Shown here in pieces: positions 21,825 through 43,503 of a stretch of 59,264 nucleotides of DNA. The notes under the pieces were generated by a model, which was not told the DNA's origin, did no database searches, and worked only from the letters and a program-made list of their open reading frames with translations. Every line of letters starts with the position of its first letter. The first letter of the stretch is position 1. Where the stretch lies: positions 1 to 59,264 of the IMG/VR virus record IMGVR_UViG_3300009481_000013, one strand, 5' to 3'. Source of the DNA: a virus. The position numbers and the translations under genes were made by a program.

Positions 21825-21831
21825 GAAATAT

Positions 21832-21909
21832 GCGCCCAAAGTGTCAAGAGGCTCTGTATACCTGTTTTGTACTCAGGAGGACCGAGTTCGAGACTTGGTG
21901 GGTGCTCCA
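21832..21909 (+). tRNA. tRNA-Thr(TGT)
   Basis: Acceptor GCGCCCA/TGGGTGC, discriminator T, encoded CCA. T-arm CCGAG-TTCGAGA-CTTGG. Anticodon loop TTTGTAC. The D-stem is weak (mostly G-U) and 31-39 is a T-T mismatch, so it may need modification or be degenerate. Confidence 0.7.
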
Positions 21910-21961: not shown

Positions 21962-22259
21962 GGGGGATCCATGGTTTCGACAGAGTAAGGAGAATGATTC
22001 ATACAAGGAAGCCAGCCAACAAATGCTTTAAATCAGTGTTGGAAAGTATAACTGCAAACGATAATGTTGAACAGTTCGCTCCTATTGCTCTAGCAGCGTA
22101 GAAAGCTGGGCGTCAACTGCCTGGGAACAGAAAGTTGAAAAGAGAAGAATGAATGGTAGAATGGAATGTCAGTTGCTGGACTCAAACCAGCTAACCTTGT
22201 AAGTATTTGAATTATTTGAGTTATTTTGGACAGCGGTTCGACTCCGCTATCCTCCACCA
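21962..22259 (+). ncRNA. ssrA: tmRNA (ssrA), one-piece, with CCA
   Basis: Acceptor GGGGGAT (21962) pairs with ATCCTCC before ACCA (end 22259). The T-arm is AGCGG-TTCGACT-CCGCT. The 5' part has the tmRNA-type GGTTTCGACAGAG. The resume codon GCA (22054) starts the tag ANDNVEQFAPIALAA, then TAG (22099-22101). The ending A-L-A-A is a protease-recognition type tail. tmRNA frees stalled ribosomes with SmpB and tags the peptide for degradation; no smpB is visible here, so the host protein is presumably used. Confidence 0.95.
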
Positions 22260-22312: not shown

Positions 22313-22387
22313 AGGTTCGTAACTCAGAGGCAGAGTGCTACTTTTACACGGTAGAAGCCGAGATTTCGAAATTCTCCGAACCTACCA
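22313..22387 (+). tRNA. tRNA-Val(TAC)
   Basis: Acceptor AGGTTCG/CGAACCT is perfect, discriminator A, encoded CCA. D-stem ACTC/GAGT, anticodon stem CTACT/GGTAG with loop TTTACAC. The T-stem has one T-T mismatch. Confidence 0.85.
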
Positions 22388-22390
22388 TAG

Positions 22391-22464
22391 GCGTGCAGTG
22401 AAGGGCGGGATTGACTATCGTCCAGTTCATAGCCTAGTCAGCAATGAATCCTGACACTGCACGC
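22391..22464 (+). ncRNA. Small structured RNA closed by a 10-bp stem
   Basis: GCGTGCAGTG (22391-22400) pairs perfectly with CACTGCACGC (22455-22464). Inside, GGATT/AATCC and GACTA/TAGTC can form two more 5-bp helices. The length equals a tRNA and it lies four bases after one, but there is no T-arm or anticodon arm. It is not recognised; perhaps a tRNA remnant or a separate small RNA. Confidence 0.5.
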
Positions 22465-22647: not shown

Positions 22648-22748
22648 CCCGTTAGCAGAGACGGGCAAGATGAGTTCGAGGTCTGACGGCATTTCCACGC
22701 TGCTCACTCATCAGGGATACGATACAACAACCGCCAAGTGGTGTATCC
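22648..22748 (+). other. Hairpin-rich spacer between tRNAs
   Basis: No gene is seen. Three successive inverted repeats are present: CCCGT/ACGGG (22648-22665), GATGAGT/ACTCATC (22669-22712) and GGATAC/GTATCC (22715-22748). These may be processed leader or decayed tRNA sequences. Confidence 0.45.
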
Positions 22749-22777
22749 TGGGTAATGCTGATAGTTGTTAAATTTTT

Positions 22778-22856: not shown

Positions 22857-23124
22857 TTGCGTTAGGGAATCCACACTGGGGACAGTGCCCGCGCAATCAA
22901 ATTACCTCGCGTTGGTTTAAAATTGATGCGTTTTTAAGGGAAAACGCGCTCGCTCCTCGCGGAAGCTTAGAGATTGAACGAGCATATACGATCTGAGGAT
23001 GTTTTTTAGATAAGCCACTGGCGGCGGGTTGAAGCTCTTCGGAGATTATCCAAAGTAACTAGCTTATGACGGGAAAGCCACCGTGTGTTCGGCTTGACAA
23101 GGTACGGAGAGACGTCGCATTTGT
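22857..23124 (+). other. 268-base spacer without a gene
   Basis: I see no convincing coding sequence. Structures include CACTG/CAGTG near 22876-22889 within a TTGCG/CGCAA pair, and a perfect GCGTTTT/AAAACGC hairpin (22928-22947). A TTGACA at 23094-23099 with a downstream GGAGAGAC block precedes tRNA-Ile. Confidence 0.45.
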
Positions 23125-23202
23125 GGGTGTGTAGCTCAGCCAGGTTAGAGCAGTCGTCTGATACGCGAAAGATCATAGGTTCAAATCCTATCATACCTAC
23201 CA
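23125..23202 (+). tRNA. tRNA-Ile(GAT)
   Basis: Acceptor GGGTGTG/CATACCT (first pair G-T), discriminator A, encoded CCA. D-stem GCTC/GAGC, anticodon loop CTGATAC in a 4-bp stem, T-arm ATAGG-TTCAAAT-CCTAT. Confidence 0.85.
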
Positions 23203-23204
23203 CA

Positions 23205-23272
23205 GCGGAAGACGTTGGTTCGATTCCAACTATCACAACCATAGTGATATCGTTTAGTGGAAGGATATCCGC
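23205..23272 (+). tRNA. Circularly permuted tRNA-like gene (3' half before 5' half)
   Basis: First part: anticodon-stem strand GCGGA (23205), AGAC, T-arm GTTGG-TTCGATT-CCAAC, acceptor TATCACA, A, CCA (ends 23241). One base later comes the 5' part: AGTGATA (23243), TC, D-arm GTTT-AGTGGAA-GGAT, A, anticodon-stem TCCGC (23268-23272). The acceptor pairs 6 of 7 and the anticodon stem 5 of 5, with tRNA-like spacing throughout. The break lies in the anticodon loop, so no anticodon can be read. It may be an expressed permuted tRNA or the remnant of a tandem duplication. Confidence 0.55.
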
Positions 23273-23329
23273 ACCATTTTAAGGAAAAAGAGTGACAAAC
23301 TTGGAAAAAAGCATTGCACGCATTAGCAA

Positions 23330-24939: not shown

Positions 24940-25013
24940 GTCCCAGAGAACTACTTGCTACCCAACTTGGACGGGAAAAAACGTAGTGACAGATTGGAGA
25001 GACGATCGCGAGT

Positions 25014-25097
25014 TAAGGGTTGGCAGAGTGGTTTAATGCGACCTCCTACAGGGAGGTGTCCCGAGACGGACCGTGGGTTCGAATCCCACACCCTACA
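25014..25097 (+). tRNA. Class II tRNA-like gene, odd anticodon ACA and no CCA
   Basis: Anticodon stem ACCTC/GAGGT is perfect with loop CTACAGG, which by position reads ACA. The long variable arm (GTCC/GGAC) suggests Leu or Ser; a one-base shift would read CAG (Leu). T-arm GTGGG-TTCGAAT-CCCAC. The acceptor is weak (5 of 7) and no CCA is encoded. Confidence 0.5.
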
Positions 25098-25107
25098 CTC
25101 ATTTTAC

Positions 25108-25199
25108 GGAAGGCTGACAGAGTCAGGTTGAATGTAGCGGGTTGCTAACTCGTAGGTTGTGAAAGCTTCCCAAGGGTTCGAATCCCTTGCCTTCCTCCA
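25108..25199 (+). tRNA. tRNA-Ser(GCT)
   Basis: Acceptor GGAAGGC/GCCTTCC perfect, T, CCA. Anticodon stem GCGGG/CTCGT, loop TTGCTAA, long variable arm, T-arm AAGGG-TTCGAAT-CCCTT. Confidence 0.9.
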
Positions 25200-26999: not shown

Positions 27000-27005
27000 A
27001 ATATG

Positions 27006-27118
27006 GGGGGCGATAGTGTAAGTTGGTATGCACGCCTGCAAGGACGCTTGAGGAAGCGAGGATTAATTACCCTTGTGACTGCGGGAAGGTTTGTAGGTTC
27101 GAACCCTACCGTCCCCCA
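27006..27118 (+). tRNA. tRNA-like gene with ~32-nt insertion in the anticodon loop
   Basis: Acceptor GGGGGCG pairs with CGTCCCCC (one bulged T). D-arm GTGT/GCAC, T-arm GTAGG-TTCGAAC-CCTAC. Between CTGCA (27036-27040) and its partner TGCGG are 39 bases instead of 7. The last seven, TTGTGAC, would be a His(GTG) loop; the extra 32 hold a CGCTT/AAGCG hairpin. No CCA is encoded and the discriminator is not His-like. It could be an intron-bearing tRNA or a decayed chimera. Confidence 0.5.
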
Positions 27119-34530: not shown

Positions 34531-34546
34531 AGAGATTGATGATTTA

Positions 34547-34828
34547 TGCTCGTGCTGCCGTCGAATGATAGATCGTAGCCAACCGTTCTAAGGGGAGTCT
34601 CAGCTGAACCTGTGGATTGAAAATGAAGCAGGGAGAAAGACGAACTGAAGTTTGAGGATCGATAGGAGAGGGATAGCTTCCTCAAAAATGTTCCTCACGG
34701 AAGGCGAGCCCTGGAGAGTAGGAAAAGGTGCGAAGAGTAAGCACTGAAGTACAAAATCCTAGCGTTGTCCGACTCAGACAATGCAAAAAAGGCTTAGGGT
34801 TAAATTCCCTACACGGGCGCTTTTTTTT
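34547..34828 (+). ncRNA. Candidate ~280-nt structured RNA with tRNA-like closing domain
   Basis: GCTCGTG (34548-34554) pairs with CACGGGC (34812-34818), and directly before the latter stands a 5-7-5 T-arm-like hairpin TAGGG-TTAAATT-CCCTA (34795-34811), exactly as in a tRNA or tmRNA. Inside are TTTGAGGA/TCCTCAAA, GTGC/GCAC within TAGGA/TCCTA, and an 8-bp stem around GCGTTGTC. T8 (34821-34828) follows. No coding frame is seen in this 312-base gap. It could be a divergent tmRNA-like RNA, an intron-bearing tRNA or a new RNA. Confidence 0.55.
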
Positions 34829-36718: not shown

Positions 36719-37222
36719 ATGTTAGACGAAAAAGCAGTTGAAGAGTCAGATTTCTTGAAACTTGGAGAGGCTCTAAGAGATCCAAAGTTTCTAGAGGTAA
36801 TGGTAAAGAAATGCCAGCTTGAAAACAAGGTCCGCGTCATTCCCGATAGAGAAACAGACGAACCCTATCTTGTACGCTACTATCTTCAAAACTTCAGACC
36901 GTTTGGACGTATTGTAATGCACAACGTACTTAGGTCAGATATTGATGGATTACACGATCATCCTTGGGGATTTCAAAACTACATCATTCGTGGTGGATAT
37001 TGGGAAACCAATCAAGAAGGAAGATTCTGGCGCCCAGCTGGCTACAGCGCCACAAGAGCCTCTGATTATATGCATCGTCTTGAGATTGATCCAGCTAAGG
37101 CGCTTGATGAAACTTGGACGCTATTTATGATGGGTCCTAAGGAAAAAGACTGGGGATTTCTCAATGAAGGTAAAGAATGGGTTCAATGGGAAAAACACCT
37201 AGCAAATAGAAAGAAGAAGTAA
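36719..37222 (+). CDS. Cupin-like protein
   Basis: 167 aa; AAGGAAG before the ATG at 36719 decides the start. L-H-D-H-P-W-G-F-Q-N-Y-I-I-R-G-G-Y-W-E near residue 84 is the first cupin box (HxH...G-x-Y-x-E), and M-H-R-L-E-I near 120 may be the second histidine. Metal-binding beta-barrel; catalytic role unknown, though related phage proteins are often near modification genes. Confidence 0.65.
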   Translation: MLDEKAVEESDFLKLGEALRDPKFLEVMVKKCQLENKVRVIPDRETDEPYLVRYYLQNFRPFGRIVMHNVLRSDIDGLHDHPWGFQNYIIRGGYWETNQEGRFWRPAGYSATRASDYMHRLEIDPAKALDETWTLFMMGPKEKDWGFLNEGKEWVQWEKHLANRKKK

Positions 37223-37224
37223 TA

Positions 37225-37293
37225 TATTCGGGGTGCTGGGCACAGGAAAGCCTCCAAAACTATCCTTGCTGGGTTCGATTCCCAGACCGTTTG
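37225..37293 (+). tRNA. Degenerate tRNA-Trp(CCA)-like gene
   Basis: Loop CTCCAAA reads CCA (Trp) and the T-arm CTGGG-TTCGATT-CCCAG is intact. The D-arm is shortened (GTGC/GCAC with a tiny loop), the anticodon stem pairs 5 of 7 and the acceptor is poor, with no encoded CCA. It is the only Trp candidate in the window. Probably a pseudogene or a highly divergent tRNA. Confidence 0.4.
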
Positions 37294-37315
37294 CAAAACC
37301 TTAGGAGGTTGAATT

Positions 37316-43154: not shown

Positions 43155-43166
43155 GCGCCGGAAGAT

Positions 43167-43186
43167 GTAGGGTATTGAATCCCTAC
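43167..43186 (+). other. T-arm-like hairpin fragment
   Basis: GTAGGG-TATTGAAT-CCCTAC, a perfect 6-bp stem, stands 12 bases after tRNA-Leu with no tRNA body around it. It may be a leftover 3' tRNA part. Confidence 0.35.
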
Positions 43187-43265
43187 TGCAACTAAAGAGG
43201 GAAATGCTGACACATTTGCTTCTGCGAGGGAAAAAGGATATGTCAGTATCTTACAAAACCATCGT

Positions 43266-43299
43266 TCTTGTATAGCTCAACCAGAGCACCGGATATTTT
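43266..43299 (+). tRNA. tRNA 5' half A
   Basis: TCTTGTA, TA, D-arm GCTC-AACCA-GAGC, A, CCGGA, TATTTT. This is a tRNA from the 5' end into the anticodon loop, where tRNA-Glu(CTC) begins on the very next base. Confidence 0.5.
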
Positions 43300-43376: not shown

Positions 43377-43411
43377 CCCCCGGTACGTGGGTTCGAATCC
43401 CACTGCACGTG
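43377..43411 (+). tRNA. tRNA 3' half
   Basis: CCCC, CGG, TAC, T-arm GTGGG-TTCGAAT-CCCAC, acceptor strand TGCACGT, G; no CCA. CCGG can pair with the CCGG of half A or half B. The acceptor pairs 5 of 7 with half A and 6 of 7 with half B downstream. Confidence 0.5.
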
Positions 43412-43415
43412 TTTT

Positions 43416-43437
43416 TAATAGCTGTCACTATTAAAGA
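43416..43437 (+). other. Perfect 8-bp hairpin between tRNA halves
   Basis: TTTAATAG, loop CTGTCA, CTATTAAA. It lies in the 62-base spacer between the 3' half and half B. There is no T-tract after it. Confidence 0.45.
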
Positions 43438-43473
43438 ATACAAGAAGATTGTTGGCAGGCAATGCTTGACTGC

Positions 43474-43503
43474 AAGTGTATCGTCTATTGGAAGGACGCC
43501 GGA
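43474..43503 (+). tRNA. tRNA 5' half B
   Basis: AAGTGTA, TC, D-arm GTCT-ATTGGAA-GGAC, G, CCGGA, then TTTTTTATAA and element 43514-43525. Spacing is exactly tRNA-like up to the anticodon loop. Its best partner is the 3' half upstream, which gives a permuted order. Confidence 0.5.

What the first reader, a model, noticed from the sequence alone, without database searches (positions are those of the whole stretch)
23205..23272. tRNA with its two halves in permuted order
A 3' half (GCGGA to CCA) is followed one base later by a 5' half (AGTGATA to TCCGC). The anticodon stem pairs 5/5, the acceptor 6/7, and every arm has canonical length. Circularly permuted tRNAs are known from a few algae and archaea, where a circular precursor is cut. 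In a phage this would be novel; the plain alternative is a tandem duplicate that lost its outer halves.
Basis: seen in the sequence. Interest (0 to 1): 0.85.

Follow-up and report, generated by a model that had tools for sequence, protein, structure and literature searches.

The report
Permuted tRNA-like RNA in a phage
In a large phage's tRNA cluster, the two halves of a tRNA-shaped RNA are written in swapped order; the fold is real and apparently kept by selection in a related phage, but it looks more like the known tRNA-mimicking 'Y RNAs' of bacteria and phages than a tRNA that reads codons.

Summary
In detail: window 23205-23272 holds a tRNA 3' half (with CCA), one base, then the matching 5' half, with acceptor 6/7 and anticodon stem 5/5. 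A covariance model of rearranged normal tRNAs finds it at 39.5 bits, and its minimum-energy fold is the permuted cloverleaf. Related phage G007 has the same element in the same place: 35 of 70 positions identical, yet 20/21 pairs stand in each (8 changed on both sides), which argues against simple decay. Two IMG/VR screens found 13 distinct places where neither half belongs to a complete tRNA; in all 13 the acceptor halves pair at least 6/7, against 3 of 106 complete tandem pairs. Several of these carry a leader-trailer helix, match Rfam YrlA and lie in phages with a Ro/TROVE gene; they are YrlA-type Y RNAs, whose tRNA-like module has this same order. The window element has that module but no Ro-binding stem, no YrlA match and no Ro gene in the fragment. 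It lacks U33, a definable anticodon and BHB-like pairing. Best reading: a compact, stemless, Y-RNA-like tRNA mimic. A decoding permuted tRNA or a young relic is not excluded. New variant of a known kind.

The parts
23205..23241 (+). tRNA 3' half of the permuted element (positions 39-73 plus CCA): GCGGA AGAC GTTGGTTCGATTCCAAC TATCACA A CCA
   Evidence: R1 covariance model match 23205-23272, 39.5 bits; Rfam tRNA half match 23203-23238, 19.2 bits
23242..23242 (+). single base between CCA and position 1; with A73-CCA it forms the 5-nt linker ACCAT that closes the acceptor hairpin
   Evidence: linkers of other elements are also mostly 5 nt
23243..23272 (+). tRNA 5' half (positions 1-31): AGTGATA TC GTTTAGTGGAAGGAT A TCCGC
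23125..23202 (+). complete tRNA-Ile(GAT) whose CCA ends 2 nt before the element
23273..23290 (+). AU-rich trailer ACCATTTTAAGG after the element; no complementarity to the leader
43155..43293 (+). second permuted tRNA-like candidate between tRNA-Leu(TAG) and tRNA-Glu(CTC): 3' half 43157-43193 (T-loop changed), linker with hairpin, 5' half 43266-43293; counterpart in G001 at L001 8672-8813
   Evidence: G001 copy is the best R1 match, 49.8 bits; the two copies were paired by eye
43377..43503 (+). third, weaker permuted candidate after tRNA-Glu: 3' half 43379-43410, 5' half 43474-43503, absent from G001
   Evidence: acceptor 6/7, anticodon stem 4/5

Best explanation
The locus encodes a real RNA that folds into a circularly permuted cloverleaf: T-arm, then acceptor helix closed by a 5-nt loop, then D-arm, all closed by the anticodon stem. 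It is a tRNA mimic built like the tRNA-like module of YrlA Y RNAs, in a compact form without the Ro-binding end stem, co-transcribed in the phage's tRNA array and cut out by the processing of its neighbours. It most likely acts by being taken for a tRNA, for example as a decoy or competitor for host tRNA nucleases or modifying enzymes, or as a tether for a nuclease such as PNPase, rather than by decoding. Shown: the permuted cloverleaf, its presence in the same interval of G007 with intact pairing, recurrence in other phages, and the same element order in YrlA. Inferred: expression, processing and the mimic function.
For: Permuted cloverleaf found by an independent covariance model and as the MFE fold. 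G007 element in the same interval, 20/21 pairs kept with 22 of 42 paired bases changed and 8 double changes; 0 of 200,000 simulated neutral copies kept that many. Levitt pair G15-C48 here, A15-U48 in G007 (sequences). All 13 distinct orphan-orphan sites in two IMG/VR screens pair across (>=6/7), 3 of 106 complete tandem pairs do, and 73 genome-collection matches contain no orphan-orphan site. Rfam's YrlA consensus has the order T-arm, acceptor hairpin, D-arm, and YrlA matches fall on the helix-bearing elements. G007, G001 and L169 elements have 5-nt closing loops ATTGT and ACTGC like those of Y-type elements (the second screen selected for AYTG; these three were first found without that condition). 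Close relative G001 encodes RtcB and an Rnl2-type RNA ligase in its tRNA region; RtcB, Rsr and Y RNAs share operons in bacteria (PMC7790460).
Against: No Ro-binding leader-trailer helix; no YrlA hit at the element; no TROVE gene in the window, G001 or G007, all fragments. CCA sits exactly where a tRNA needs it. G001 lacks the element at this place. G007 and window copies could be independent permutations rather than orthologues. No expression data.
Confidence: 0.5

Rival explanations
1. A true circularly permuted tRNA gene: flanking processing frees the two ends, an RNA ligase joins them in the anticodon loop, and RNase P plus 3' trimming open the acceptor loop to give a decoding tRNA.
For: Encoded CCA and one intervening base, as in Thermofilum pendens tRNA-Tyr; Glu-type D-helix features (U11-A24, U13-G22, A46, no 47) in this element and G007 (sequences; identity rules from memory); RNA ligases in G001.
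Against: No U33 from either flank in the window element with the full stem; the CCA of tRNA-Ile overlaps the would-be anticodon; no BHB or other end pairing; CCA not kept in G007 (ATTGT). RNA ligases are common in large phages for tRNA repair.
Confidence: 0.2
2. A relic: a tandem tRNA duplicate that lost its outer halves, not yet decayed.
For: G001 lacks it; a tRNA-Trp relic and other odd tRNA remnants lie in the same arrays; anticodon loop lost; A1-A72 mismatch.
Against: Diverged element with intact pairing at the same place and of the same architecture in G007; recurrence in unrelated phages with mostly 5-nt linkers.
Confidence: 0.2
3. A cis element: the cloverleaf is a processing or termination signal between the tRNA array and the downstream small ORF.
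For: In both phages it lies between a tRNA and an ORF, and T-runs follow the closing stem.
Against: Keeps tRNA features (T-loop, GG in D-loop, Levitt pair) that a terminator or cleavage signal does not need; the G001 element at L001 8672-8813 lies between two tRNAs with no ORF.
Confidence: 0.1

Closest known systems
YrlA bacterial/phage Y RNA, tRNA-like module (Rfam RF02553)
   Same: Same order: closing stem, T-arm, acceptor hairpin with closed loop, D-arm; found in phages, often near Ro/TROVE and RtcB genes
   Different: No 5'/3' Ro-binding stem, no RF02553 match, no Ro gene in the fragment, lies 2 nt after a tRNA CCA inside a tRNA array, and encodes CCA in the loop
Circularly permuted tRNA genes of algae and Thermofilum pendens
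   Same: 3' half before 5' half with a short intervening sequence (1 nt after CCA, as in T. pendens tRNA-Tyr)
   Different: No BHB-like end pairing, no U33 or anticodon, phage context
Permuted tmRNA
   Same: Acceptor 3' strand encoded before the 5' strand
   Different: No mRNA-like domain; this phage has a normal one-piece tmRNA at 21962-22259

Membership tests
YrlA Y RNA | tRNA-like module in the order T-arm, closed acceptor hairpin, D-arm | tested here: met
   consensus order
YrlA Y RNA | large stem made by pairing of 5' and 3' ends (Ro binding) | tested here: not met
   longest leader-trailer run 4 bp within 60 nt; met in L401, L402, L362, L376 (8-11 bp)
YrlA Y RNA | match to Rfam RF02553 | tested here: not met
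   no hit at the element up to E=10; the nearest YrlA hit, 17.7 bits at 23074-23185, covers tRNA-Ile
YrlA Y RNA | Ro/TROVE protein encoded by the same phage | tested here: inconclusive
   none in G000, G001, G007, all fragments
Circularly permuted tRNA gene | 3' half upstream of a cognate 5' half with a short intervening sequence | tested here: met
Circularly permuted tRNA gene | BHB-like motif when the termini pair | tested here: not met
   no leader-trailer complementarity
Circularly permuted tRNA gene | joined halves give a 7-nt anticodon loop with U33 and an anticodon | tested here: not met
   no junction keeps all five stem pairs together with U33; the best search result trades a stem pair for U33
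Circularly permuted tRNA gene | circular RNA intermediate and mature tRNA | not testable with these tools
   needs RNA from infected cells
Tandem-duplicate relic | loss of constraint on pairing in relatives | tested here: not met
   G007: 20/21 pairs kept at 50% identity; rests on one relative and on orthology

The most novel reading that the evidence does not exclude
The element is a phage-encoded circularly permuted tRNA gene that is joined by a phage or host RNA ligase into a working tRNA, and phage Y RNAs with intact anticodon loops (L401 Lys-UUU, L402 Arg-UCU, L392 Thr-UGU) are likewise permuted tRNAs that can be spliced.
Probability: 0.15. Interest if true: 0.9.

Novelty: new variant of a known kind. 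Interest (0 to 1): 0.58.

Why it matters
It shows that permuted tRNA-shaped RNAs recur in large phages, mostly unannotated, with and without the Ro-binding stem. It links phage tRNA arrays, RNA repair genes and Y RNAs, and it raises a testable question: whether Y RNAs arose from tRNA genes by circular permutation, since several phage Y RNAs rebuild complete tRNAs with anticodons.

Tried and rejected
Group I permuted intron-exon: no group I intron among the listed Rfam matches in the window or in the loci of 12 elements (one search listed 150 of 166). Homologues of the element in annotated phages by blastn: none convincing. Exact junction pattern in IMG/VR: none. More close relatives by flanking proteins: only G001 and G007. 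RNA ligase as proof of splicing: Rnl2-type or RtcB genes in 6 element-carrying contigs, absent from the window, G007 and others, and not restricted to carriers (G013); only suggestive. Acceptor covariation over 21 elements is partly by construction because most were selected for pairing; the unselected test is.

Full report
The window is a 59,264-base virus record from IMG/VR, possibly a fragment. It carries a tmRNA and 26 tRNAs by ARAGORN, with further tRNAs by Rfam. Its relatives are G001 (IMGVR_UViG_3300022226_000011) and G007 (IMGVR_UViG_3300012271_000010); G007 encodes a baseplate wedge subunit, so this is a contractile-tailed phage lineage.

Observation. The sequence at 23205-23272 is exactly as described. 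A covariance model built only from normal tRNAs rearranged into the permuted order, with random linkers, finds it at 39.5 bits, beside the G007 element (42.4 bits) and two elements of G001 (49.8 and 38.5 bits). Ordinary tandem tRNAs also match this model, with up to 46.6 bits, because they contain a T-arm followed by a D-arm, but their acceptor and anticodon stems are broken. Unconstrained folding gives the permuted cloverleaf for the window, G007 and L169 elements.

Conservation. In G007 the interval between an upstream tRNA 3' end and tRNA-Phe holds the same structure with the same 2-nt leader and 5-nt linker. The two copies are identical at 35 of 70 positions; 22 of 42 paired bases differ, yet each copy forms 20 of 21 pairs, 8 of them changed on both sides; no simulated neutral copy in 200,000 reached 20. 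The caveat is that the two could descend from different tRNAs permuted separately. In G001 this interval has no such element.

Recurrence. In 77 both tRNAs were complete, and 1 of them paired across at acceptor >=6/7; in 5 neither half belonged to a complete tRNA, and all 5 paired across. The same pattern in 84,980 bacterial and archaeal genomes gave 73 sites and no orphan-orphan site. A second screen (linker AYTG, any D-arm) gave 41 sites: 29 complete pairs, 2 with acceptor >=6/7, and 10 orphan-orphan sites, all >=6/7. The union is 13 distinct orphan-orphan sites. This excludes chance adjacency of unrelated halves, but not by itself young relics of tandem duplicates.

What the others are. Five of these elements (L401, L402, L392, L362, L376) rebuild complete tRNAs with U33 and an anticodon if joined inside the anticodon stem. 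L401, L402, L362 and L376 have leader-trailer helices of 8-11 bp, and L392 a 7-bp one read by eye. Rfam YrlA matches L401, L402, L392, Caulobacter phage CcrPW and the mycobacteriophages Sparky and Phabba at these places, below the gathering score. TROVE genes lie in the contigs of L392, L402, L368, L377 and L326 and beside elements or their blast matches in CcrColossus, Sparky, Asterius and FuzzBuster. The YrlA consensus itself runs Ro stem, closing stem, T-arm, acceptor hairpin, D-arm. YrlA is described as a basal stem that tethers Rsr plus a tRNA-like domain modified by DusA and TruB, in some bacteria in operons with RtcB (PMC8394870; PMC7790460). So permuted cloverleaves of this kind are known in substance as Y RNAs.

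The window element. It shares the module but does not show three other YrlA features: no end stem, no RF02553 match, no Ro gene in the fragment. It also fails two tests of a permuted tRNA: no end pairing, and no U33 or anticodon together with the full stem. It is therefore filed under neither; it works most like the tRNA-mimic module of a Y RNA. PMC7790460 suggests that YrlA's tRNA-like domain could act as a competitive inhibitor of an anticodon nuclease, a plausible role for a phage RNA.

RNA repair. G001 carries an Rnl2-type ligase beside its tRNA array and RtcB in the tRNA region; other carriers have RtcB or Rnl2-type ligases, whereas no RtcB was found in 24 related or distant records and Rnl2 in only two of 19 records, G001 and G013. 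Such ligases are common in jumbo phages for tRNA repair (PMC7824862), so they do not prove splicing.

Literature. Searches of the held library found no report of permuted tRNAs in phages; the primary YrlA papers are not held.

Noticed in passing
window 27005-27117; G001 about 24999-25110: tRNA-like gene with an insert of about 40 nt in the anticodon loop; the anticodon stem pairs in both (CCTGC/GCGGG versus CTTGC/GCGAG), a possible intron.
   Followed up: partly
window about 34545-34820; L041 335-600: RNA of about 275 nt with tRNA-like ends (7-bp acceptor that covaries, T-arm) and no CCA, followed by a T-run; conserved in G001 and G007; no Rfam match.
   Followed up: partly
window 22707-22770; L007 726-811; L196 2184-2250: Conserved segment ending in CCTGGGTAATGC; in G001 and G007 it gives sub-threshold HDV-like ribozyme hits.
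   Followed up: no
window 22383-22464; L004 17409-17480; L128 1580-1650: Conserved hairpin RNA with the motif GGCGGGA(T/C)TGACTATCGTCC in all three phages.
   Followed up: no
window 37222-37297: Decayed tRNA-Trp at the place where G001 has two tRNAs called Trp.
   Followed up: partly
L401, L402, L392, L141, L211, L368: Phage Y-RNA-like elements that rebuild complete tRNAs with anticodons, mostly with the junction at 28/29, suggesting that Y RNAs may derive from tRNAs by permutation.
   Followed up: partly
L418-L421, L423, L425 (CcrPW, CcrColossus, Sparky, Phabba, KP13-26, FuzzBuster): Permuted tRNA-like elements in isolate genomes with no annotation at the element.
   Followed up: partly
window about 21828-21909: tRNA-Thr(TGT)-like gene, homologous to L004 16769-16847, missed by ARAGORN and Rfam in the window.
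   Followed up: no
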